Shown: positions 812-44,773 of the stretch, piece by piece
Layout of the letters: the number at the start of each line of letters is the position of its first letter
Position numbering within the stretch: position 1 is the stretch's first letter
Source: a virus
Virus record (IMG/VR): IMGVR_UViG_3300046740_000358
Coordinates: 1 to 64,000 of that record
Length of the DNA: 64,000 bases
Strand: one strand, 5' to 3'
Notes under the pieces: generated by a model
Told to the model about the DNA's origin: nothing
Databases searched by the model: none
Seen by the model: only the letters and a program-made list of their open reading frames with translations
Position numbers and translations under genes: made by a program

Positions 812-2065
812 CTACTCGCCCTCGGCCGCGCTGGCGCCCGGCTCTCCGGCTTCGGGCATCGCCCGCAGTTTCGCGATCTCCTCGTCCGCCTGCGCGGCGG
901 TCATGGCCGACGTGGACGGCACCCCGAGACGTTCGGTGATCTCCGACATCTGGACCCCGCGGTCCGCTGCCAGGTAGGCGATGTCCCGCGTCTGCTGGGC
1001 CGTGGCCATCTTGATCTTTGGGGGCTTCGTATCGGCCGGTGGCTTGTCGGCAACCGCCGCTGCCGGCTTGTCACCGCCGAACGCCCTTTCCTCGGCCGCC
1101 TTGGCTGCTGGGTCGGCGGGCTTGCCGGCGGCGGGCACCGTCTCGGCCTGCTTCGCCTCACGCTCGAGGCGCTTCTTCAGCGCGATGTCATCGAGCGTTT
1201 CCGGCTTCTCGGCGATGGCCCTGGGCTGCTTTGTCTCGACGTCGGCGGGCGACGTCTCCTCGGCCGCCGCGCCGATCTGCATGGGGATCGGGGCGAGCCC
1301 TTCCTCCTGGCGATCGTTGACGGCGATACCATGCGCGAGTTCGATGGAATTCGGCACCATCTTCGAGGAGCGTCGCAGTACCGTCTTTTTCTGCATCTCC
1401 TCTTCGTCCGACTTCCACGGGCTGATCGACGGCAGGTTCTTTCGGTTCTTGATCCGGTCGAGTTCCTTTTTCGTCATCACGTCGAAGTGGTAGCCGCCGT
1501 CCTTGAACTTCCACACGCAATAGGCGTGCGTGACTTGGCCGGGATCCTCCTCGTCCGTCGGAACGTGCCAGCACCGATCGATCAGGCCGTATTCGTATTC
1601 GAACTGGTCTTTCTCGTGCACCACACGCACGGCTACGCCAGCGATCTCTCCAGAGTTGCGAGCCAACTTGATCAACCCCTTGAATCCGATCACCAGCGTG
1701 CAGATGTTGACCTGGGCGCTGTTGTCTCGGAACGGAATCAGGTAGGCGTGACCCTGCGGTCCGTTGGGCTCGAGCCCGAGCTGCGCGCAGGTCAGCATGC
1801 ACGAGAACACGCTCTCCTGGGTGCAATCCAAGATGCTCAGTTGCCCCGGCTTCGGGACGGCCTGCATCGCCGTCAGGATCACCCGGTAGAAGCGCACCGG
1901 GTCGATGTGCTTCGGGAGCGCGATCTTGATCTGGTCCATGCCGCGGTCGAGCACTTGCTTGAACTGCACGAACCGGCTGGGTTGCTTGTTGGCGGGGCCC
2001 ACGATCTCGCCCGAGACGGCGGCCGGTGGTCCTGGGATTGTCGTCGGTCCTTTGGTCGTGGCCAT
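812..2065 (-). CDS. recT: RecT-family single-strand annealing protein
   Basis: 417 residues. Residues 30-260 carry the RecT fold signature: LSILDCTQESVFSCMLTCA, LGLEPNGPQGHAYLIPF, a conserved IGFKGLIKLARNSGEI block and the KKELDRIKNRKN...KKTVLRRSSK segment. RecT proteins coat ssDNA and anneal complementary strands, normally with a partner exonuclease, which here is the adjacent YqaJ-type gene 3 bases upstream. Residues 265-417 form a long Ala/Pro/Lys-rich extension ending in a compact acidic helical segment (TRDIAYLAADRGVQMSEITE), longer than the roughly 270-residue norm. A GAAGGAA ribosome-binding site precedes ATG 2065. Confidence 0.93.
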   Translation of the reverse strand: MATTKGPTTIPGPPAAVSGEIVGPANKQPSRFVQFKQVLDRGMDQIKIALPKHIDPVRFYRVILTAMQAVPKPGQLSILDCTQESVFSCMLTCAQLGLEPNGPQGHAYLIPFRDNSAQVNICTLVIGFKGLIKLARNSGEIAGVAVRVVHEKDQFEYEYGLIDRCWHVPTDEEDPGQVTHAYCVWKFKDGGYHFDVMTKKELDRIKNRKNLPSISPWKSDEEEMQKKTVLRRSSKMVPNSIELAHGIAVNDRQEEGLAPIPMQIGAAAEETSPADVETKQPRAIAEKPETLDDIALKKRLEREAKQAETVPAAGKPADPAAKAAEERAFGGDKPAAAVADKPPADTKPPKIKMATAQQTRDIAYLAADRGVQMSEITERLGVPSTSAMTAAQADEEIAKLRAMPEAGEPGASAAEGE

Positions 2066-2068
2066 GGC

Positions 2069-3025
2069 TTACTTCCTTCGCTTCTTGGTGGTGGTCGATT
2101 CGAGCCGCAATTGCCGGAACATCTCGTCCCGCGGTTCGATGTGGCGCTCCGTCGTGTACAGCGTGAGCCGCCGTCCGTCGGGCAGGACGCCGAACGTGGC
2201 GCTTCCGATGGCCTCGCGGAGTTTGTTCTCGGCCTCGTCGGCGCGCGCGCCTTCAATCTTTTTTACGATCACCATGGCCGTCTTGGCCTCCACCAAGGTC
2301 TGCCACCAGATGGCCGCCGCCGGCGGGAGTCCGATCTCGTCCCCGCTGTCCCGCGGGTGCAGGCGCTTGATCGCGCGCGCCGTCGCCTCCGACCCGTCGA
2401 TCGGCGGCGGCGTGTCGGACGTCACGTATTTCCAGAAGTCCGCGACGGTCGCCCGCACCTCGGCGATGAAGGCTTCGTTCCGCACCATGTCGCGATAGAC
2501 GAAGGAGTTCCCGCCCAGGATGCCCGCGGCGCTCCCCCACGCGACTCCCGTGCACGCGGCTTGGCACTGCACCTGGCACTCCACGTGGGGCGGCGTCGAC
2601 TCGTCCCAATTGTGGGTCATCCAGAAACCAACGTTCTTGGTCTCGAGGACGCCGTTGCCGGGCATGCCGGGGGCGTCGACGATCCAGCGGTCAGGGGTGG
2701 CGCGCAGCACTTCGAGCTCGGGGTCGATGACCACCACGTGCGGGCCTCCCCCCGCCCAGAGCTTGCGCTTCGCCCGGTCTTCGTACATGTCGGCCACCAC
2801 CGGCTCCATGCGGCGGCCGATCTCGAAGTAGTCGGCCGAGTCGTCGATCACCTTGTCGGCCCGCCCCGTCTTCTGGAGCCAGAGCGTGTAGGGGCTGCCC
2901 CAGGATGCCGGCGCCAGCCCGAACAGGATCGCCACCTCCGAAGCCCCGACACCATCACGGCGCCCAGCTAGCCAAGCTTCGCGCGTGCCGTAGTCCAGCA
3001 ACTTCCCTTGTCGTAATTCGCTCAT
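2069..3025 (-). CDS. YqaJ-like viral recombinase / lambda-exonuclease-family nuclease
   Basis: 318 residues with the PD-(D/E)XK exonuclease pattern: GVGASEVAILFGLAP near residues 26-40, the conserved GRRMEP glutamate, ATPDRWIVDAP (catalytic Asp) around residue 115, LETKN (E-x-K) about 16 residues later, and the VECQVQCQAACTG glutamine helix. These enzymes resect 5' strands so that RecT can load. The gene sits directly upstream of recT in the same operon. The C-terminus (INE-like helices and IEPRDEMFRQLRLES) is less conserved. Confidence 0.92.
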   Translation of the reverse strand: MSELRQGKLLDYGTREAWLAGRRDGVGASEVAILFGLAPASWGSPYTLWLQKTGRADKVIDDSADYFEIGRRMEPVVADMYEDRAKRKLWAGGGPHVVVIDPELEVLRATPDRWIVDAPGMPGNGVLETKNVGFWMTHNWDESTPPHVECQVQCQAACTGVAWGSAAGILGGNSFVYRDMVRNEAFIAEVRATVADFWKYVTSDTPPPIDGSEATARAIKRLHPRDSGDEIGLPPAAAIWWQTLVEAKTAMVIVKKIEGARADEAENKLREAIGSATFGVLPDGRRLTLYTTERHIEPRDEMFRQLRLESTTTKKRRK

Positions 3026-3710: not shown

Positions 3711-3940
3711 CGGTCCGCCTCAAGTTTGTCGGCACCAGCCTTCAGGACGAAGGCGGCGTCGGCCAATGCATGGGCTCGTGCGATCTCGATCGCGTCGGTC
3801 ACGCGGTCGCACAGGGTTCCACACGGCGGTGGGACGAGTCCACGCCGCCGCATACCCTCCGCTTCGTGACAGGCGGGAACACCATCGCCCGCCAGAAATG
3901 CATTGGTGAAGGCCCGGTGGGCGCGGTCGCGGGCCGTCAC
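3707..3940 (-). CDS. hypothetical protein, 77 aa
   Basis: GTG start at 3940 coupled to the upstream stop (GTGA), and the stop is coupled to the next start. Contains two Cys (PACHEAEGMRRRGLVPPPCGTLCDRV) followed by a helical segment (DAIEIARAHALADAAFVLKAG). The cysteine spacing could allow metal binding but is not a standard zinc knuckle. No family assigned. Confidence 0.55.
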   Translation of the reverse strand: MTARDRAHRAFTNAFLAGDGVPACHEAEGMRRRGLVPPPCGTLCDRVTDAIEIARAHALADAAFVLKAGADKLEADR

Positions 3941-4338
3941 AGCCGCCCCATGATCTGGTCGCGCACCACTTCGAGGTAATACGCGATTTCACTCGACACG
4001 GGGGGCGGGCCGTCGATCCACCGCTGCACGATGGCCCCGCACCGCAGCCGTTCATACATGGCCGCCGGGTGGTCGTGCCGCGCGCCGCGCTCGATCACGA
4101 GGTCGACGCCGGCCGCCATGTGCGGCGCCAACTTCGACCGGACCGCCCGCATGACCATGGACTGCACGAGCCCTCGCGCCCACCACCGGAAGTGCAGGAC
4201 CACCGTCACCTTCCGATCCCCGCGGTCCGAGACGCTGTAGGTCTCCACGCCGAACGGGTTCATCCCCTTGGGGTAGCCTTCTCGCATCACGCGGACGAGG
4301 CTCATCAGCGTGCCGCGCTCGCTGTCGGGCACCGTCAC
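3937..4338 (-). CDS. hypothetical protein, about 123-133 aa
   Basis: The frame is open to 4653, but its upstream part overlaps the TrpF-like gene and has no protein character. Two starts are credible: GTG 4338, which overlaps the upstream stop as GTGA, and ATG 4305 (MSLVRVMREGYPKG). The protein has a beta-rich middle (GDRKVTVVLHFRWWARG) and helical C-terminus ending EVVRDQIMGRL. No recognised family; the preceding gene is translationally coupled. Confidence 0.55.
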   Translation of the reverse strand: MTVPDSERGTLMSLVRVMREGYPKGMNPFGVETYSVSDRGDRKVTVVLHFRWWARGLVQSMVMRAVRSKLAPHMAAGVDLVIERGARHDHPAAMYERLRCGAIVQRWIDGPPPVSSEIAYYLEVVRDQIMGRL

Positions 4339-5039
4339 GACATCACCGCAACTTGCTTCAGGACCGACTCGACGGCCTCCATATCCAGCGCGGAATCGTC
4401 CTCCGTCCGGACTCGGCGCTCCATGTCGATCCAGAACGGATCGGACCGGCACGCATTCCCTTCGATGGCCCTGATCTGTTCGACCACGTTGTCTGGGCCA
4501 AGGCCACCTGCGTATCCACAAGGAATACCGCTGAGCGCTCTCGGCCAAGAATCCGGCAGGACGCCGGCGCCGCCCGACGTGTCGAACAGGACCGCAGCGT
4601 CGACGCCGAGAGCCTTTGCCGCCATCGCGTTGTGGCCGTTCACGCCGTCCCACTGGAAGATGAACTTCTTACCAAGCAAGCTCCGCATGTTCGCTGCCAT
4701 CGCGGTCGACGACTCGTGTGCTTCGGCGTGAGTGTTGATCTGGACCCGCTGCCCAACCGCCGCGATCCCGGGGACATCCTCCCAGTCGAGTTCCCCTTTC
4801 AAGAGTTCGCGCACCCACTTGCCGCATAGGTGCGTCGAAACGTTCAACGGGCCGAAGCCCTTGGCGACGGACACGAAGCGATCGATCCAGCCTCGCGACG
4901 GGAACCGCGGCGTCCCCTCCTGCCTTTCTGACACCAAGATCCCCCACTCGACGAAGGAGAACCGCTGCGACAGCGCGATCAGGTGGTGGATGTTGGTGCT
5001 GTCGTCGGCCCCGGTGATGGTGACGAGGTACGGTTTCAC
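4335..5039 (-). CDS. TrpF-like TIM-barrel protein (phosphoribosylanthranilate isomerase fold, likely not TrpF activity)
   Basis: 234 residues. The pattern follows phosphoribosylanthranilate isomerase from end to end: strand 1 with VTITGADD, an LFDTSGGAGV strand carrying the catalytic-Asp position, then a phosphate-binding segment ALSGIPCGYAGGLGPDNVVEQI and a last strand FWIDMERRVRTEDDS. The TrpF catalytic Cys in the KICG motif is absent (Thr in VTITG), so the anthranilate reaction is doubtful. It is a cytoplasmic enzyme fold placed in the early operon between small genes and the helicase. It may act on a phosphorylated ribose or nucleotide compound, or be a binding protein. Fold fairly likely, role open. 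Confidence 0.6.
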   Translation of the reverse strand: MKPYLVTITGADDSTNIHHLIALSQRFSFVEWGILVSERQEGTPRFPSRGWIDRFVSVAKGFGPLNVSTHLCGKWVRELLKGELDWEDVPGIAAVGQRVQINTHAEAHESSTAMAANMRSLLGKKFIFQWDGVNGHNAMAAKALGVDAAVLFDTSGGAGVLPDSWPRALSGIPCGYAGGLGPDNVVEQIRAIEGNACRSDPFWIDMERRVRTEDDSALDMEAVESVLKQVAVMS

Positions 5040-5042
5040 GGT

Positions 5043-5291
5043 TCACGTTCCTTTCGGCGGTGGCAGATTCTTCGCCCATTCACCGAGGGCCACCACCTCG
5101 GCGCGGGTCAAAACGATGTTCGAGACCAGCCGGTTGCGGCGCCAGTGCGCGACGGCTATCACCCCAGACGGGCTCTCAAGTACCATGTGGGCGCATACCG
5201 CGGTGCCGCCATCTCGAGCGCGGCTCAGGACGTAGCCCGCTCCCAACCCGCGGCGTCGCTGTTCTTCGAAGGCCGACATGGGGTCAGTCAT
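5043..5291 (-). CDS. hypothetical protein, 82 aa
   Basis: The start at ATG 5291 (MTDPMSAFEEQRRRG) overlaps the helicase stop codon. A longer frame to 5345 would lie inside the helicase gene, so it was not used. The protein is alpha/beta (GYVLSRARDGGTAVCAHMVLE, LVSNIVLTRAEVVALGEWAKN). It sits between the helicase and the TrpF-like gene, and may assist replication or early metabolism. No family recognised. Confidence 0.6.
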   Translation of the reverse strand: MTDPMSAFEEQRRRGLGAGYVLSRARDGGTAVCAHMVLESPSGVIAVAHWRRNRLVSNIVLTRAEVVALGEWAKNLPPPKGT

Positions 5292-6762
5292 CCCTCGGCA
5301 GCCGGCTGTCGCCTGCCCACACTGAATCGAAGTCGTCTGCCGCATGGTCGTCCGAGAAGGTCATGGTGGCCTTGTCGTATATGCACGGCAGTTCTCCCGT
5401 GGCTCCCGCCCGATTCTTCGGGATGATCAGCAGCGACTTTAGCCTCAGGCGCTCACGGACCTCCTTGGGGTCAGGCTCAACGCCGCGAACCGTGGCGATC
5501 GGCTTCATTGGCTCGCTGAACGGCATGATGATCACGTCGGCGTCAGCTTCGATCGCGCCGCTGCCTTTGAGGTGTTCCTTGCTCGGCTTCTGGACCTCTC
5601 CCTCGAAAGACTTGTCGTGGGCCTTCTTCGTGAGTTGGGAGATCAGGGTTACAGGGGACTTCAGGTCTCGCGCCAGCCCCTTCGCCTCACCAGTGAAGTT
5701 TGCGATCGCATTCTCTTCGCTCTGCCCGCGCTGCTGGGCACGCTTCGCGATCTGCAGGTAGTCGATCGTCACGTTCACCAGCGGTGGCAATCCGTCGGCG
5801 GCAGGCGGCATCCCCTTCCGGACCTTCGCCGCCCAACGCCGCGAGATCGCCACCACGCGCTCGATGCTGGTCCGCTTGTCGTAGATGTATAGGGGCAGCG
5901 GACGGAGACGCTTCGAAGCCGAGTGAATCGGAATCCAATCGTCCGGCAAGACAGCGCCACGGTGGATCTTCCTGGTCTCGACCATCGACAGGGCGCCAAG
6001 GCCGCGTTCGATCAACTCCTGCTTTGACATTTCCATCGAGAAAACGAGGTTCGGGATCCCCTGCTGCTCGGCTGACTTGATCGCGACGTCCCACGCCCAC
6101 GAACTCTTGCCTCCACCCGGGAGGGCCGCGACCACGATCAGTTGGTCCCGCGCATACCCGCCGATCTTCTTGTCGAAGATCCCCAGCCCAGAGCGCACAT
6201 AGAACAGGTTCGGGTGTTCGTTTTTTGTCTCGATCGTGGACATCGCGTCGTCGATCACATCGCCAACGCGCACCGGATCGTCGTCGCCAGCGGACTCGAT
6301 CCGGGACATGTACGTCACGTGGTCATCCACCAAGTCTGTCACGTCCTCGAGGGCGTACGCGCGCGATGCCGTCTCTAGGCACTTCGCGATCACGCGTCTG
6401 GCGGTCGCCCGCTCCTTCACGATCGCGGCGTAGTGGCCCACGTTTTCGGCCGTGCCAACCGCCCCGGTCAGAGTCAGCAAGTAGGACTCTTGCCCATCCA
6501 GCATCGAAAGCTTGCCCCGCCGGCGGAGATCTTCTGCCAGTGGGATCACGTCGATGGGATCTCCGTTTTCGATAAGCGTTCGCATGGACTCGAAGATCTC
6601 GCGATGCTGGGGGAAAAAGAAATCGTCGACGGCCAGCAGGCCAGCGACGTCGTCGAACGCTGACGGCTTGATCAGCACCGCGCCGAGGGTTGCTTGCTCA
6701 GCTTCGAGACTGCTCGGGGATTGGCGCTTTCCAGCCGCCTCGGCATCAAGTCCGGTTGCCAT
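5284..6762 (-). CDS. dnaB: DnaB-type replicative DNA helicase
   Basis: 492 residues from ATG 6762, which has AGGAG upstream; the frame continues to 6915 but only inside the loader gene. Residues 15-120 are the DnaB N-terminal helical domain (SLEAEQATLGAVLIKPSAFDD). The RecA-like core has a Walker A variant ALPGGGKSSWA around residue 225, FSMEMSKQELIERGLG, the H3 strand VTIDYLQIAKR and the H4 block with NAIANFTGEAKGLARDL...TLISQL. It is the hexameric 5'-3' helicase that opens the fork. The adjacent loader and initiator genes make a self-contained replication module. Confidence 0.95.
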   Translation of the reverse strand: MATGLDAEAAGKRQSPSSLEAEQATLGAVLIKPSAFDDVAGLLAVDDFFFPQHREIFESMRTLIENGDPIDVIPLAEDLRRRGKLSMLDGQESYLLTLTGAVGTAENVGHYAAIVKERATARRVIAKCLETASRAYALEDVTDLVDDHVTYMSRIESAGDDDPVRVGDVIDDAMSTIETKNEHPNLFYVRSGLGIFDKKIGGYARDQLIVVAALPGGGKSSWAWDVAIKSAEQQGIPNLVFSMEMSKQELIERGLGALSMVETRKIHRGAVLPDDWIPIHSASKRLRPLPLYIYDKRTSIERVVAISRRWAAKVRKGMPPAADGLPPLVNVTIDYLQIAKRAQQRGQSEENAIANFTGEAKGLARDLKSPVTLISQLTKKAHDKSFEGEVQKPSKEHLKGSGAIEADADVIIMPFSEPMKPIATVRGVEPDPKEVRERLRLKSLLIIPKNRAGATGELPCIYDKATMTFSDDHAADDFDSVWAGDSRLPRDD

Positions 6763-9766: not shown

Positions 9767-9966
9767 ACACCGTCCATGTAAAAGACCTTAGCTAGTTGCT
9801 CAAACGTGGCGCATCGCACGCCGTCGAATTCTCGGCAGGAGCACTCGGCCGACGTCTCGCACGGCCCCATGACCACCAGCGTGGCGTCAGCGATGACGCA
9901 GGAACAGCCCTCGTGTCCCGGGCGCGGGAGGTTCGGGCGCACGACAAACGGCGTGACGTCGATCAT
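9763..9966 (-). CDS. hypothetical Cys-rich protein, 67 aa
   Basis: ATG 9966 (MIDVTPFVVRPN) overlaps the stop of the DUF1643 gene. It has five Cys, including CSCVIADATLVVMGPC and ECSCREFDGVRC, which suggests a small metal-binding fold. No family recognised. Confidence 0.55.
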   Translation of the reverse strand: MIDVTPFVVRPNLPRPGHEGCSCVIADATLVVMGPCETSAECSCREFDGVRCATFEQLAKVFYMDGV

Positions 9967-10481
9967 GCGCCCCTCGTCGCGAACGGAACGATCTGGGTGT
10001 GGGGTGGTAGGAAGAGGGGGTGTTTCGGCCAGCCGTCCTTGGTGCGCCCGAAGCAATGCACCACGGGCTTGTGCCGCAACAGCGCCGCCCGCACCTCGGA
10101 CGTCCGCAGTTCAAGCACGCGGTGCTTGAGCGGGATCGCGCCCCAAGCGGCAACCACCACCTCACAGCGCGCGCACATGGCTGCGATCGCGGGGTCGTTG
10201 TCGACGGGCGTGAACACGTCGAGGCCCGCCCGGATCGCGTCCACCAAGCGGTCGGGGTCCGTGGCCCGAAAGGGCGAGACGTTGACGACCATGATCCCGT
10301 CGAAGCCGTTGTGCGCGGCGATGCGACAGACGGACCTGATCGTGTTGTCGTTGCTCGTCTTGTCGTCGACGAACTCCTCCGATGCCATCGAAGGGTTGAC
10401 CATGCAGATACCAAGGGGCCGCGTTGGGTTGTCCGTGATGCTTCGTCGAAGGGTGAAGCGGTACGTGGTCGGCTCGCTCAT
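9963..10481 (-). CDS. DUF1643 family protein
   Basis: 172 residues from ATG 10481, coupled to the methyltransferase upstream (ATGA). The family pattern is clear: YRFTLRRSI, LGICMVNPSMASEEFVDDKTS, then VNVSPFRATDP and VVVAAWGA, and RTKDGWPKHPLFLPPHT near the end. DUF1643 proteins are frequent in phages and mobile elements, often near DNA modification genes; their activity is not known. The neighbour here is indeed a cytosine methyltransferase. Confidence 0.85.
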   Translation of the reverse strand: MSEPTTYRFTLRRSITDNPTRPLGICMVNPSMASEEFVDDKTSNDNTIRSVCRIAAHNGFDGIMVVNVSPFRATDPDRLVDAIRAGLDVFTPVDNDPAIAAMCARCEVVVAAWGAIPLKHRVLELRTSEVRAALLRHKPVVHCFGRTKDGWPKHPLFLPPHTQIVPFATRGA

Positions 10482-12175
10482 TGTCCACTCGCTTTCCGTT
10501 GCTCGGCGATCGCCCGTCCCACCGCTTCGCCCATCGCGATCGGCATGGCCATTCCGATTTGCTTCCATCGGGCCGACTTGGTGACCCCCGAGAAGTACCA
10601 CCGGCGGACCTCCCCGCAGAACCTGCACTTCTCCCCCGGGCGCACGCCGTCGCGCATCAGCCCCGGCGTCTCGGCGTCCACCTGGTGGCCCACGCAATCC
10701 CCATCTGGGAACCCCTGCAGGATGGCGGCCGCGCGCTCCGACAGGATGACGGCGTTCGGGCCCTTGTGCTGGGAATTGCCCACCGCCGGATCGTGGTGAC
10801 CGGGCGTGCCCATGCGCTCGTCGCCCTGGATGGTCGTCGACGGCCTATCCCACGGCCACTCCAGCGTGGTCCCGTTCCCCATCTCATTGCTCAGGACGGC
10901 GGGGGCGGGGTCGGCGCCGGTGGCAAACGTCTGGCAGCGCGCGCCGCGGGTCGGGCCTACCGTGCGCTCGAGTTGGGGGACGTCATCGACCAGCAGCGAC
11001 GTACCACCGCGCGAGTTCCGCCCGCCGTTGGTCTTGATGGTGCGGCCCGGCTCGTCGAGCTTGCTCTCCGGGTGGTTGTCCCAGGAGCGAGCCGCGGGGA
11101 CCGCCAGCGCTCGGCCGCCCTGCGCTCCCCTGTTCGCCCGTGAACCCGTGACCGCTGGCGCTGGCGCATCGAGTGTCGCAGGCGGGTGCCTGTCGTTGAA
11201 AGTGTTTGTCGCCGGCGCTCGGTGCGGCGCGGTCGCAATCAGGACCTGGCCGCCCTTGATCCCTTCGTGCGACGTCACCACCCGAGCGGGTTCGTCGGGC
11301 CGGCTGCAGACGGACTCGTCGCCGCCATTCGGGACGTATGCCATCGGTTCCGGCGCCGGCACGCCCGCGATCAAGATCTGGCCTCCCTTGTGGTGCTGGC
11401 GCGCGGTGACGGTTCGCGCCGCCTCGTCGCCCGTCGAGCATCGCGTGTCGTCGCCGCCGTTCTTTCGCCCGTCCTCTCCCCGCGCGCGCATCCGCATGTT
11501 CACCGGGCGTCCGAGCTCGGCCAGGGGGAGGTGTTCCAGCGCCTGGCGGCAAGTCACGTAGGGCAGCAGCGCGTGCCCGTCGAACGATGCTTGTCCCGTG
11601 GCGGGGGCGTGGGTCGGCGCCGGCCACTTCACGCACGGGCCGTCGAGATGGCCGAACCAGAACGGGCGGGACCGGAATTGCGGCACGCCGAACGAGACCG
11701 CGTTGAGAGACGCGAAGTCGCGAACGCAGTACCCGACCGCCGCGAGCGGGGCCAGCACCTCTTGCACCACGTGCCACGACGTCGAGTCCTCGAGCCCCGG
11801 CACGTTGCCGATCAGGTACGCGCGCGGCCGCAGCAACCGAATGATCTCGGCGGTGACGTGGAGACAGTCCCGCTCGTCAGCGGTCCCCAAGCGCTTCCCG
11901 GCCCGGCTCCAAGGGGTGCAAGGCGGGTCGGCAACGATCAGGTCCAGCCGATCGCCAAACTGCGCCGGCGTGTGCCCGTCCAACGTCGGGCGCCATCCGT
12001 GGCGGACCATCTCCGCCAGATCGTTCACGTCGATCTGGATCGGCCGGTGCCCGTGGTTGCGCTCGTACGAATCGCAGGCGTCGGCGTCTTTGTCGAAGGC
12101 CATGTGCATCTTCACGCCAGCGCGGCGAAGGCCCTCCGCCAATCCACCGCTGCAAGGGAATAACTCTATGTTCAC
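10478..12175 (-). CDS. C5-cytosine DNA methyltransferase with repeat-rich middle region
   Basis: 565 residues, GTG start at 12175 (GTGA overlap). Motif I FPCSGGLAEGLRRAG, motif IV ADPPCTPWS with the catalytic Cys, motif VIII QFRSRPFWFG, and C-terminal motifs IX/X including LQGFPDGD and GMAMPIAMGEAVGRAI. Motif VI, normally ENV, reads IGNVPGL (Gly replaces the catalytic Glu), which could weaken activity. Residues 225-430 replace a compact target-recognition domain with four or more loose repeats of the type DEPARVVTSxxGxKGGQVLIA. Probable role is protection of phage DNA from host restriction. Confidence 0.9.
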   Translation of the reverse strand: MNIELFPCSGGLAEGLRRAGVKMHMAFDKDADACDSYERNHGHRPIQIDVNDLAEMVRHGWRPTLDGHTPAQFGDRLDLIVADPPCTPWSRAGKRLGTADERDCLHVTAEIIRLLRPRAYLIGNVPGLEDSTSWHVVQEVLAPLAAVGYCVRDFASLNAVSFGVPQFRSRPFWFGHLDGPCVKWPAPTHAPATGQASFDGHALLPYVTCRQALEHLPLAELGRPVNMRMRARGEDGRKNGGDDTRCSTGDEAARTVTARQHHKGGQILIAGVPAPEPMAYVPNGGDESVCSRPDEPARVVTSHEGIKGGQVLIATAPHRAPATNTFNDRHPPATLDAPAPAVTGSRANRGAQGGRALAVPAARSWDNHPESKLDEPGRTIKTNGGRNSRGGTSLLVDDVPQLERTVGPTRGARCQTFATGADPAPAVLSNEMGNGTTLEWPWDRPSTTIQGDERMGTPGHHDPAVGNSQHKGPNAVILSERAAAILQGFPDGDCVGHQVDAETPGLMRDGVRPGEKCRFCGEVRRWYFSGVTKSARWKQIGMAMPIAMGEAVGRAIAEQRKASGQ

Positions 12176-23289: not shown

Positions 23290-23364
23290 TGGTTGCAGGG
23301 GCTGGGATCGAACCAGCGACCTTCGGGTTATGAGCCCAACGAGCTACCGCTGCTCTACCCTGCA
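23290..23364 (-). tRNA. tRNA-Met (CAT anticodon), CCA encoded
   Basis: The minus strand folds into a full cloverleaf. The acceptor stem pairs TGCAGGG with CCCTGCA (7 of 7). The D stem is GAGC/GCTC. The anticodon arm is TTGGG-CTCATAA-CCCGA. The T arm is GCTGG-TTCGATC-CCAGC. An encoded A-CCA tail follows. The anticodon is CAT. An elongator Met is the simplest reading, but tRNA-Ile2 (lysidine) also carries CAT and cannot be separated by eye. The TTCGATC T-loop is standard. Confidence 0.93.
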
Positions 23365-41699: not shown

Positions 41700-43331
41700 A
41701 TGACGTCCATGGCCACATTCTGGGATCGGGTGTTCCGCCGCCAACCTACAGCCGACGCGAGCTCCCTGGCTCCCCGGGCCCCCAGTGACGCGATGCTGGC
41801 CGCCATCGGGCGCGACAGCGCAGTGGCAGCGACGGCGCCGAGCCGCCCTGGCGTGTGGGACGGGATCCAGAACTGGGCCGCCGGCATCGGTGCCGGTCCC
41901 GACAAGCGCCTCGGGAATGCGTTCAACCCGATCGCGTTCCTGACCAGGCAGGAGTGCGAGGCGTACTACAACGGCGACTGGGTGATGGCCGCCGCGGTGG
42001 ACAAGCCCGTGGAGGACATGACCAGGAACTGGCCGACCCTCGTGTGGCCGGGCAAGGACAAGGACGAAGCGGCAACCAGCGCGCTCGCGGACGTAGAGGA
42101 CGAACTGCAGATCCGCGAGCACGTCGTCGAGGCCATGACCTGGGGGCGACAGTTTGGCGGCGCCGCCCTGATCCTCATCATCTCGGGTGAGGATGACTGG
42201 TCGCTCCCGATCGGGTACAAGCGCGGCGCCATCGTCGCCCCCGGGACGCAGCCCAACTATGACGCGATCGGCGTTGGGGATCTCGACCTCGTCTACCCGG
42301 TAGACCGCCACCGCCTTGCCCCCACCGGCATGGCCGACAACGCGCGCCGCGATCCCAGGACGGGCAAGTCCAACCAGAACTTCGGGCAGCCGCTGGCCTA
42401 CAGCTTCACGGACGAGGCGGGCATCAGCGAGTACAACGTCCACTGGTCGCGGGTGATCCGCTTCCACGGCAAGCGCCTGTCCCGATACGACTGGTGGCGG
42501 AACGGCCGCTGGCACGCGAGCGTGTTCCAGAAGATTCAGACCGACGTGATGGACTATGCCGCCTCCCGCGCTTCGACGGCGACGCTGGGCCTCGAGCAGG
42601 CGGTGGACATCCTGAACATCCCGGGGCTCGCCGAGAAACTGTCGACGCCCCTGGGCCGCACGCAGGTGATGGACCGCATCGCCTTCGGCGCGAACCTCAA
42701 GGGGCTCAACCGCGTCTGGCTGCTGGACGGCGGCAACAAGACCGTCAACCGTGACCCCGAGATGTACTCCCAGAAAAAGGTCGACTACAGCGGGTCGGCA
42801 GCGGCGTTGGAAAGTTGGATGTACATCATCAGCGGCGCGACGGGCGTGCCGGTCACGCGGCTATTCGGGCGCTCCCCGGGCGGGCTGAACAGCACCGGGG
42901 ACAGCGACATGAAAAACTACCGCGAGCAATGCGCGAACGGGCAACAGACCGACATGCGCCCCGCGCTGCTGCGCCTGTACGAGGTGGTGATTCGCAGCGC
43001 CATCGGCTACATGCCCGACGACCTCAAGATCGTGTTCCCCCCGATCGACGATCCCAGCCGCTCGGAGGCGGCCGAGATCTTGGCGAAGGAAGCGACGGCC
43101 TACAAAGCCTTCGTCGACATGGGGATGCCCCTCGGGATCGTCATGCGGGAGTTGAAGTCGAAGGGAACCTCGTTCACGACCCTCGAGGACGCCGACGTCT
43201 CGGCCGCAGCGGACCTCGACAAGCAGGACGCGGAGCTCGCCAAGGCGGGCGCGAAGGCGCAGGCGGCGGCGTTCAAGAAGGGCGAGGTACCGGGGGCGCC
43301 CGGCAAGACGAGGCCGGCGCCGGCGGAGTAG
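41700..43331 (+). CDS. portal protein (DUF1073 family)
   Basis: 543 residues. FNPIAFLTRQECEAYYNGDWVMAAAVDKPVEDMTRNWPTL, then MTWGRQFGGAALILIISGEDDWSLPIGYKRG and SEYNVHWSRVIRFHGKRLS match the DUF1073 portal family. YTSATGVPVTRLFGRSPGGLNSTGDSDMKNYREQ is the stem/crown sequence. The portal is the 12-fold ring in the head vertex that admits DNA. It is alone on the plus strand against the minus-strand head operon; AAGGCGGG precedes ATG 41700, and ATG 41709 is an alternative. Confidence 0.88.
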   Translation: MTSMATFWDRVFRRQPTADASSLAPRAPSDAMLAAIGRDSAVAATAPSRPGVWDGIQNWAAGIGAGPDKRLGNAFNPIAFLTRQECEAYYNGDWVMAAAVDKPVEDMTRNWPTLVWPGKDKDEAATSALADVEDELQIREHVVEAMTWGRQFGGAALILIISGEDDWSLPIGYKRGAIVAPGTQPNYDAIGVGDLDLVYPVDRHRLAPTGMADNARRDPRTGKSNQNFGQPLAYSFTDEAGISEYNVHWSRVIRFHGKRLSRYDWWRNGRWHASVFQKIQTDVMDYAASRASTATLGLEQAVDILNIPGLAEKLSTPLGRTQVMDRIAFGANLKGLNRVWLLDGGNKTVNRDPEMYSQKKVDYSGSAAALESWMYIISGATGVPVTRLFGRSPGGLNSTGDSDMKNYREQCANGQQTDMRPALLRLYEVVIRSAIGYMPDDLKIVFPPIDDPSRSEAAEILAKEATAYKAFVDMGMPLGIVMRELKSKGTSFTTLEDADVSAAADLDKQDAELAKAGAKAQAAAFKKGEVPGAPGKTRPAPAE

Positions 43332-43333
43332 GG

Positions 43334-44773
43334 TCACCCGGCGTTCGGTCCGAAGGCGTCGAAGATGGACGAGGGCCCCTTCGCGATGTTCCAGCCGTTC
43401 GACATGGCATCCACCTGGTCGTCGTGGGCGTCGCCAACGCCCGTGAACTTCGAGCACTCGTCCAAGAACTTCCCCAGCCATTTCGGGGCGTCCTTCAGTT
43501 CGAAGGCGGGCACCAGCAGCCGACCGATGTTCCAAGCTGCGGCGGCCGGCTGGGCGCGGGTGAACTTGTCGCCGATAGGGACCACCTCGACGATCCGCTC
43601 GACGCCAAGTTCTCGGAGCATCTGCGGGATCGCCAGGAACGCCCCCACGCACTCTACCCCGATGGGGGTCTGCCCCCACTCCTCCTGGATGGCCAGCAGG
43701 TCACGCACGAACGCTGGGATCGTCTTCTGCTCGCGGTAGACGTAGCGAACGTAACCGATGATGTAGCGGCGGCCGTCGTCTTCGACGACATCCCGGATCG
43801 ACATGACCACCACCGCGCTGTAGTCGGCCGATGTCCTTTGGCTGGCAGCGGGGTCGGACATCAGGATGAGACGACACCCCTCGAAAGACGTTGTCGCAGG
43901 ATCGTAGTAGTGCGCCTCTCCGAATACGGATCCGCCGCGTGGGCGGGGGGCGCCCTGGTAAAGGGAGGCGAACGCGAACTCTCCGAGATCTTCCTCTCGT
44001 TCCTCGAGCTTCTTGAGCGGGTAGAGTTCGGGCCACAGCGCTTCGCCGGGCTGACGGTTGAGTGGATCGTCCTTCTCGGCGATGGCCGACAAGTTGATCA
44101 CCTTCCAGCCCTCGCGCTTGGAAAGGCGCCCGATCAGGTCGTCTTCATGCCAGCGGGTGTGGATGACGAACACCGACGCGCCCTCGAGCCGGGTCAGCGC
44201 CACCGTCTTGAACCAGTCGTCTACTTTCTCACGGAATACCTCGCTGTAGGCGTCAACCGGGCCCTTGAATGGGTCGTCGACGACCAGCATGCCCTTTATG
44301 CGCTGGCCCGTGAGGCCCGATCCGATGCCGCCGGCAAGCAGGCCACCTCCCTGCGTGGTGCGCCACTCGCTCTTGTTGTCGGTTGACTTCGAGATCTTGA
44401 TCCCAGCGCGCCCGGCGAGCTCGCGCGCCAGCACGCTTTTCGAATGCGCCTGCTGGGAGTTGTAGGAGAAGTAACCGTTCGGGTCGGACGGGTGCCGGGA
44501 CAACCACCAAGCGATCGCGTTCACGAACAGCGTGGTCTTGGCGTGTCCCGGGGGAAGCGAGATCAGGACGCGGACGGGCTCGAGTTGCGCGCGCTCAAGT
44601 TCCGCGATGATGGGGTAGAGGTGCCGCGGCGCCGGGTGGTGCGGGGACATCCGCGCGATGAAGTCGCGAAGCGACTCCCCGCCGCTCATCCCCTCCAAGC
44701 ATGTCAGAAGTTCGTTCTGCTCAGACTCAGAGAGGGTCGCCCACTCCTCAGGTGTCAGATCCGGAATGTCCAT
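43334..44773 (-). CDS. terL: terminase large subunit
   Basis: 479 residues. Walker A VLISLPPGHAKTTLFVNA near residue 80, Walker B GMLVVDDPFKG near residue 160, then the RNase-H-type nuclease with LILMSDPAAS near residue 300 and a DDQVDA motif at about 450. The pattern fits phage terminases of the T4-like ATPase-nuclease type. It cuts and pumps DNA into the head. The portal gene ends 2 bases away on the opposite strand, so it is convergent to it. Confidence 0.95.
   Translation of the reverse strand: MDIPDLTPEEWATLSESEQNELLTCLEGMSGGESLRDFIARMSPHHPAPRHLYPIIAELERAQLEPVRVLISLPPGHAKTTLFVNAIAWWLSRHPSDPNGYFSYNSQQAHSKSVLARELAGRAGIKISKSTDNKSEWRTTQGGGLLAGGIGSGLTGQRIKGMLVVDDPFKGPVDAYSEVFREKVDDWFKTVALTRLEGASVFVIHTRWHEDDLIGRLSKREGWKVINLSAIAEKDDPLNRQPGEALWPELYPLKKLEEREEDLGEFAFASLYQGAPRPRGGSVFGEAHYYDPATTSFEGCRLILMSDPAASQRTSADYSAVVVMSIRDVVEDDGRRYIIGYVRYVYREQKTIPAFVRDLLAIQEEWGQTPIGVECVGAFLAIPQMLRELGVERIVEVVPIGDKFTRAQPAAAAWNIGRLLVPAFELKDAPKWLGKFLDECSKFTGVGDAHDDQVDAMSNGWNIAKGPSSIFDAFGPNAG

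What the first reader, a model, noticed from the sequence alone, without database searches (positions are those of the whole stretch)
4335..5039. TrpF-like TIM-barrel enzyme in a phage replication operon
The protein keeps the barrel and phosphate-binding signatures of phosphoribosylanthranilate isomerase (GGLGPDNV, LFDTSGGAGV) but lacks the catalytic Cys. A phage-borne enzyme of this fold beside recombination and helicase genes is unusual. It might act on nucleotide- or ribose-phosphate-linked signals, or bind a host metabolite.
Basis: partly seen in the sequence, partly recalled or inferred. Interest (0 to 1): 0.65.

Follow-up and report, generated by a model that had tools for sequence, protein, structure and literature searches.

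The report
Phage TrpF-fold protein, not TrpF
A phage gene makes a barrel-shaped protein related to a tryptophan-making enzyme, but it lacks that enzyme's key cysteine and belongs to an uncharacterised family spread over phages, large plasmids and tiny-genome gut bacteria that do not make tryptophan, so it probably handles some other small, perhaps nucleotide-derived, molecule.

Summary
Window 4335-5039 (-) is a real, translationally coupled 234-aa gene between a DnaB helicase and RecT/exonuclease genes of a tailed phage. AlphaFold gives a confident (beta/alpha)8 barrel (pLDDT 96), and the nearest solved structures are TrpF enzymes (VIA Z up to 16.8). Profile comparison with TrpF is significant over strands 5-8 (E 2.5e-8). 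In 172 aligned relatives no member has Cys at the TrpF base position (Thr/Ser instead), while the general-acid Asp (D153) is near universal. A family-specific pocket is conserved: R45, H70, C72, Q100, N102, S155, D205, E207.

It is not a phage copy of trpF. The family is separate on a tree. Most large-genome carriers have a true TrpF as well. In an order of gut Alphaproteobacteria with 0.5-1.1 Mb genomes, 39 of 96 carry one to three copies, yet none has TrpF or TrpA; none of 54 phage records has TrpA. It is a mobile accessory gene, not a conserved part of a replication module. Neighbours lean to nucleotide- and RNA-related families, but none is constant. Best guess: an enzyme on a (phospho)ribosyl or nucleotide-derived metabolite; substrate unknown. 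No description of the family was found in the papers searched.

The parts
4335..5039 (-). TrpF-fold protein, 234 aa, (beta/alpha)8 barrel
5004..5015 (-). beta-1 loop T9-G10-A11-D12; T9 stands where TrpF has its catalytic Cys (equated by motif and strand order, not by profile)
   Evidence: Thr/Ser (rarely Ala) in the family, never Cys
4899..4907 (-). R45-F-P47 after strand 2; R45 resembles the anthranilate-site Arg of TrpF
   Evidence: R in 133 of 137 main-clade and 35 of 35 gut-clade members
4821..4832 (-). H70-L-C72-G73 at the end of strand 3; no counterpart in TrpF
   Evidence: H 133/137 and 35/35; C 130/137 in main clade, N in gut clade
4734..4748 (-). R98-V-Q100-I-N102 at strand 4 (TrpF has QLHGxE)
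   Evidence: Q100 in all 172 members, N102 in 171 of 172
4653..4655 (-). Q129 at the end of strand 5
   Evidence: Q 133/137 main clade; variable in gut clade
4563..4583 (-). D153-T-S155-G-G157-A-G159, end of strand 6; D153 aligns with the TrpF general-acid Asp
   Evidence: hhalign; D 136/137 and 35/35
4488..4517 (-). GYAGGLGPDN, strand 7, phosphate-binding-type motif as in TrpF
4407..4433 (-). W203-I-D205-M-E207...R211, strand 8; replaces TrpF DVSSGVE
5043..5345 (-). preceding small ORF (100 aa, or shorter from a later start), 3 bp upstream; no convincing family match
3937..4338 (-). following ORF, 133 aa, overlaps by 4 bp; no family match and not found beside relatives
5284..6762 (-). DnaB-like replicative helicase, next known gene upstream (start site uncertain; ORF runs to 6915)
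   Evidence: PHROG_19 E 1.7e-75
812..3025 (-). RecT-like annealing protein (812-2065) and RecE/YqaJ-like exonuclease (2069-3025)
   Evidence: PHROG_148 and PHROG_434

Best explanation
Shown: a distinct, uncharacterised family of the TrpF (beta/alpha)8-barrel kind, carried sporadically by phages, huge phages, megaplasmids and some chromosomes, that lacks the TrpF base and does not serve tryptophan synthesis. Inferred: it is an enzyme that binds a phosphorylated sugar or nucleotide-derived molecule at the top of the barrel. The phosphate would sit on the beta-7 GGLGP loop helped by R211. D153 would act as general acid as in TrpF, and the base role would move from the beta-1 Cys to the H70/C72 pair on strand 3 (H70 alone, or another residue, in the gut clade). 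R45, Q100, N102, Q129 and E207 would hold the rest of the substrate. The likely chemistry is isomerisation or cleavage of a (phospho)ribosyl compound. For a phage or plasmid this would mean remodelling the host's nucleotide or NAD-type metabolite pool, or removing a signal made from it.
For: Fold and kinship. Pocket residues conserved across phages, plasmids and bacteria, placed at the C-terminal ends of strands where (beta/alpha)8 enzymes have active sites. Purifying selection. Not TrpF: the family splits from TrpF on the tree (SH-aLRT 100); 12 of 13 sampled carriers with genomes of 2.8 Mb or more have a separate full TrpF; 39/96 gut Alphaproteobacteria carry it with 0/96 TrpF and 0/96 TrpA; 0/54 phage records have TrpA. 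Nucleotide leaning of neighbours: a nucleoside-deoxyribosyltransferase-like gene coupled in L017 and a weaker match beside it in L115; NAMPT-like plus PRPP-synthetase-like genes near it in L019 and L125; 12/54 carrier phage records have a NAPRT/NAMPT-family gene; a BtpA-like second TIM barrel coupled in L113 and L118.
Against: No substrate or activity was shown. The beta-8 half of the TrpF phosphate site is changed, so phosphate binding is not assured. The proposed base Cys72 is Asn in the gut-bacterial clade, so the mechanism cannot be identical there. No neighbour is constant; the neighbour counts are small, were partly found by models built from the near copies, and lack a proper base rate. 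hhalign aligned only strands 5-8; equivalence of the N-terminal half rests on fold order and motif.
Confidence: 0.42

Rival explanations
1. Catalytically dead ligand sponge or sensor: the barrel binds and sequesters (or senses) a nucleotide-derived signal of host defence, as known phage sponge proteins do with other folds.
For: Solitary mobile accessory gene in many unrelated phages and plasmids; canonical base lost.
Against: Conservation of D153, H70, Q100, N102, D205 and E207 is what one expects of catalysis. The gene is kept and tandemly duplicated in reduced bacterial genomes beside rlmN, which does not suit an anti-defence sponge. Only stray matches to defence-related models.
Confidence: 0.17
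2. Another phosphosugar enzyme chemistry on the same barrel (aldolase, epimerase, or a PdxJ-like condensing enzyme) in cofactor or carbohydrate metabolism, unrelated to nucleotides.
For: PdxJ, putative keto-acid aldolases and ribulose-phosphate epimerases follow TrpF in the fold ranking.
Against: TrpF entries rank first and only PRAI is found by sequence; no pathway gene recurs beside it.
Confidence: 0.22
3. It acts on RNA or in an RNA/DNA-modification cassette (for example on a modified-base precursor), as suggested by ASCH, DUF5131, DUF1643, PAPS-reductase-like and methyltransferase neighbours and by rlmN in gut bacteria.
For: These families lie on the same strand, often within 2 kb; rlmN directly upstream in 11 gut loci (rlmN named from the sequence, not by a family search).
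Against: Each is present in a small minority of loci and they are common phage accessory genes; no base rate was measured.
Confidence: 0.12
4. Plain phosphoribosylanthranilate isomerase carried by a phage as an auxiliary metabolic gene.
For: Fold, Pfam PRAI match, retained Asp and GGL motif.
Against: No catalytic Cys in 172 members; carriers without TrpF or TrpA; separate clade from TrpF.
Confidence: 0.02

Closest known systems
Phosphoribosylanthranilate isomerase TrpF (Pfam PF00697; e.g. PDB 1nsj, 1lbm, 1pii, 7ety)
   Same: (beta/alpha)8 fold, Z up to 16.8; Asp at the end of strand 6; GGL phosphate-type loop on strand 7; Arg after strand 2.
   Different: Beta-1 Cys replaced by Thr/Ser; strand-3 HxCG added; QLHGxE replaced by QxN; FDW and SSGVE motifs gone; 14-18% identity; carriers need not make tryptophan.
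HisA / PriA phosphoribosyl isomerases
   Same: Same barrel type; VIA hit to PriA 2y85 at Z 13.1.
   Different: From general knowledge these need Asp on strand 1, which this family lacks (Thr/Ser).
PdxJ pyridoxine 5'-phosphate synthase
   Same: Next best solved fold after TrpF (Z 14.3).
   Different: 9-11% identity and no sequence match; no vitamin B6 genes seen among the neighbours identified.
trpF in blaNDM plasmid segments (bleMBL-trpF-dsbC; PMC10732066)
   Same: A TrpF-annotated gene on mobile elements.
   Different: That gene is annotated as ordinary TrpF beside blaNDM; the present family is a separate lineage. I did not compare the sequences directly.
Phage NAD+ reconstitution pathway NARP1 (Adps, Namat; PMC12774641)
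   Same: PRPP-synthetase-like and NAMPT-like genes lie near the TrpF-like gene in L019 and L125.
   Different: A TrpF-like protein is not a described part; most loci lack these genes nearby, and the window's record has no NAMPT-family match.

Membership tests
TrpF (phosphoribosylanthranilate isomerase) | (beta/alpha)8 barrel closest to TrpF | tested here: met
TrpF (phosphoribosylanthranilate isomerase) | score over Pfam PF00697 cut-off | tested here: not met
   19.4 bits against 22.7 for the window protein; a few relatives pass (27.3 bits for L007)
TrpF (phosphoribosylanthranilate isomerase) | catalytic Cys at the end of strand 1 (KICG) | tested here: not met
   T9; 0 of 172 relatives have Cys
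TrpF (phosphoribosylanthranilate isomerase) | general-acid Asp at the end of strand 6 | tested here: met
   D153 aligned with the TrpF Asp by hhalign; near universal
TrpF (phosphoribosylanthranilate isomerase) | anthranilate-site Arg after strand 2 (SxR) | tested here: inconclusive
   R45 conserved in a like place, but the N-terminal half was not aligned by profile
TrpF (phosphoribosylanthranilate isomerase) | phosphate site: GGL loop (beta 7) and SSGVE (beta 8) | tested here: inconclusive
   GGLGP kept, SSGVE replaced by E-x-x-V/L-R
TrpF (phosphoribosylanthranilate isomerase) | role in a tryptophan pathway | tested here: not met
   0/96 TrpF and 0/96 TrpA in an order where 39/96 carry the gene; 0/54 phage records with TrpA
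TrpF (phosphoribosylanthranilate isomerase) | isomerase activity | not testable with these tools
   needs complementation or assay
HisA / PriA | Asp base on strand 1 | tested here: not met
   Thr/Ser at that place; role of the Asp from general knowledge
PdxJ | sequence kinship or B6 context | tested here: inconclusive
   fold match only
Phage anti-defence (NARP-type or sponge) | shown interference with a defence system | not testable with these tools
   only neighbourhood hints

The most novel reading that the evidence does not exclude
A new enzyme activity on the TrpF barrel, with the base moved from strand 1 to a strand-3 His/Cys pair, used by phages and plasmids to remodel or destroy a nucleotide- or NAD-derived metabolite or defence signal, and taken over as a housekeeping function by genome-reduced gut Alphaproteobacteria.
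Probability: 0.2. Interest if true: 0.8.

Novelty: new variant of a known kind. Interest (0 to 1): 0.55.

Why it matters
TrpF and HisA are the textbook pair for how one barrel fold takes on new reactions. Here is a natural, widespread branch of the TrpF barrel that stands outside tryptophan synthesis, lacks the TrpF base, keeps the acid, and travels with phages and plasmids. At least 116 viral contigs and 139 places in bacterial genomes encode it, but only 4 of 50,697 deposited phage records do, so it has stayed out of sight. Finding its substrate would name an unknown metabolite that phages find worth handling.

Tried and rejected
A single-protein scan of viral contigs found nothing; the alignment-based scan found 116. 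The first genome contigs call with A1 failed for lack of a conserved stretch. The PDB sequence search with A1 gave TrpF only weakly, and with A2 gave chance topoisomerase hits on top; neither is used as evidence. PHROGs and NCBIfam gave no match. PADLOC gave only stray single-member hits at E 2e-3, taken as chance. The BFVD fold search listed no named TrpF-like viral protein; this shows nothing about absence. The idea that the 133-aa next gene is a partner was rejected: no homologue beside relatives. One constant partner was sought and not found. The neighbour enrichment test is partly circular and is not relied on. The C-terminal part of the Azospira/Azonexus fusion looked to me like a deoxyribosyltransferase/SLOG fold, but Pfam and PDB gave nothing for it and a Bosea relative matched such families only at E 0.13-0.2, so it stays a hunch. 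A single-sequence model of a gut-clade member was too poor to use (pLDDT 49.5). Literature: no paper on phage- or plasmid-borne TrpF-like proteins of this kind was found. TrpF residue roles (Cys, Asp, Arg) are from my own knowledge, as the one paper checked did not contain them under the names searched.

Full report
WHAT IS THERE. The window is part of a 75,172-bp virus record with terminase, portal, major capsid, DnaB, RecT and exonuclease genes. ORF 4335-5039 (-) encodes 234 aa from a GTG with AAAGGAA upstream; the preceding ORF ends 3 bp before it and its stop overlaps the next GTG by 4 bp. Codon-position GC is 62/46/82% and dN/dS in the pairs where it could be computed is about 0.08-0.37.

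FOLD AND KINSHIP. With 54 viral relatives as alignment (A2) AlphaFold gives pLDDT 96 and pTM 0.92, eight strands in barrel order. Foldseek ranks T. maritima TrpF first (E 1.1e-5), and VIA lists TrpF entries at ranks 1-9 (Z 14.4-16.8, 14-18% identity), followed by PdxJ at Z 14.3. By sequence the single protein reaches PF00697 at E 9e-4, below the curated cut-off. Of the 55 aligned proteins 22 match PF00697 and essentially nothing else. hhalign of A2 against nine true TrpF sequences (A5) gives E 2.5e-8 over 115 columns, strands 5-8, pairing D153 with the TrpF Asp and GGLGP with the TrpF GGL loop. The N-terminal half is matched only by fold order and by the motif T-x-T-G for K-x-C-G.

THE FAMILY. 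Relatives: two huge-phage genomes (735 kb, held as two records, and 635 kb) and Microcystis phage Mwe-JY13 among 50,697 phage records; 17 plasmid records, mostly megaplasmids; at least 116 IMG/VR contigs; 139 places in bacterial genomes, from Patescibacteria, Bacteroidota, Pseudomonadota and others. In 289 Alphaproteobacteria the profile matches only 5 genomes and does not pick up ordinary TrpF, so the family is sporadic and the profile is specific. On a tree the 110 family rows and 9 TrpF rows separate with SH-aLRT 100 and long stems (quick tree).

THE POCKET. Over 172 aligned members position 9 is Thr or Ser (Ala in three), never Cys. R45, H70, Q100, N102, D153, S155, G157, G175, G178-G179, P182 and D205 are almost universal. 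C72, D12, Q129 and R211 are conserved in the main clade but not in the gut-bacterial clade (N; N/R; S/Q/P; mostly K). From the strand limits, these polar residues lie at or just after strand ends, the active-site face of such barrels; E31, also conserved, lies at the start of strand 2. This pattern speaks for a real, specific pocket, different from that of TrpF.

NOT TRYPTOPHAN. Of 13 sampled carriers with genomes of 2.8 Mb or more, 12 (among them Bradyrhizobium, Paraburkholderia, Achromobacter, Azospirillum and Spirosoma) have a full TrpF elsewhere as well as this gene. In the order of gut Alphaproteobacteria to which G018 belongs, genomes are 0.5-1.1 Mb; 39 of 96 carry the gene, some in two or three neighbouring copies (G018, G328), while 0 of 96 have TrpF and 0 of 96 TrpA (both controls ring in 14 of 14 known genomes). 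None of 54 carrier phage records has TrpA. Many of these genomes and records are incomplete, but the joint absence across so many makes the plain-TrpF reading very unlikely.

CONTEXT. No neighbour is constant. Recurrent same-strand neighbours within a few genes are ASCH-domain proteins, DUF5131, DUF1643, HAD and PAPS-reductase-like proteins and DNA methyltransferases. A nucleoside-2-deoxyribosyltransferase-like gene overlaps it in L017 (E 1.2e-27), and a weaker match lies beside it in L115. NAMPT-like and PRPP-synthetase-like genes lie near it in L019 and L125, and 12 of 54 carrier phage records have a NAPRT/NAMPT-family gene somewhere. BtpA-like second barrels are coupled to it in L113 and L118. 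Azospira and Azonexus plasmids carry it fused to an unassigned C-terminal part of about 300 aa. In gut Alphaproteobacteria it follows rlmN (named from its sequence) in 11 loci. The lean is toward nucleotide and RNA matters, but counts are small and no base rate was measured.

HOW IT MAY WORK. Shown: barrel, kinship, absence of the TrpF base, conserved new pocket, no tie to tryptophan synthesis. Inferred: an acid-base enzyme on a phosphorylated sugar or nucleotide-derived molecule, with D153 as acid and H70/C72 taking the base role in the main clade. The substrate is open, and another phosphosugar chemistry or an inert binder are the main alternatives.

VERDICT. A real and overlooked protein family, a new variant of a known kind. 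It is interesting because it is widespread, mobile and clearly does not do what its nearest named relative does. It falls short of a top score because no function could be shown.

Noticed in passing
L129-L172 and genomes G012-G019, G312-G402: Gut Alphaproteobacteria with 0.5-1.1 Mb genomes keep one to three neighbouring TrpF-fold genes next to rlmN-, surA- and lptD-like genes (named from sequence) although TrpF and TrpA are not found in them.
   Followed up: partly
L005:5989-7596: Azonexus and Azospira plasmids fuse the TrpF-like barrel to an unassigned C-terminal part of about 300 aa; a deoxyribosyltransferase/SLOG-like fold is suspected only.
   Followed up: partly
L113:8738-9415 and L118:7288-7959: A second, BtpA-like TIM barrel is translationally coupled to the TrpF-like gene in two unrelated loci.
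   Followed up: partly
L019:10093-12384 and L125:49-2688: PRPP-synthetase-like and NAMPT-like gene pairs, resembling phage NAD+ reconstitution genes, lie near the TrpF-like gene.
   Followed up: partly
window 41700-44773: The portal gene (+) and terminase large-subunit gene (-) are convergent with 2-3 bp between them, an unusual layout for a tailed phage.
   Followed up: no
window 9963-10697: DUF1643 protein on the same strand in the window; DUF1643 genes also occur near the TrpF-like gene in several other loci.
   Followed up: partly
window 23290-23364: A tRNA-Met (CAT) gene on the minus strand.
   Followed up: no
phage collection against viral contigs: The family is seen in only 4 of 50,697 deposited phage records but in at least 116 metagenomic viral contigs.
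   Followed up: yes
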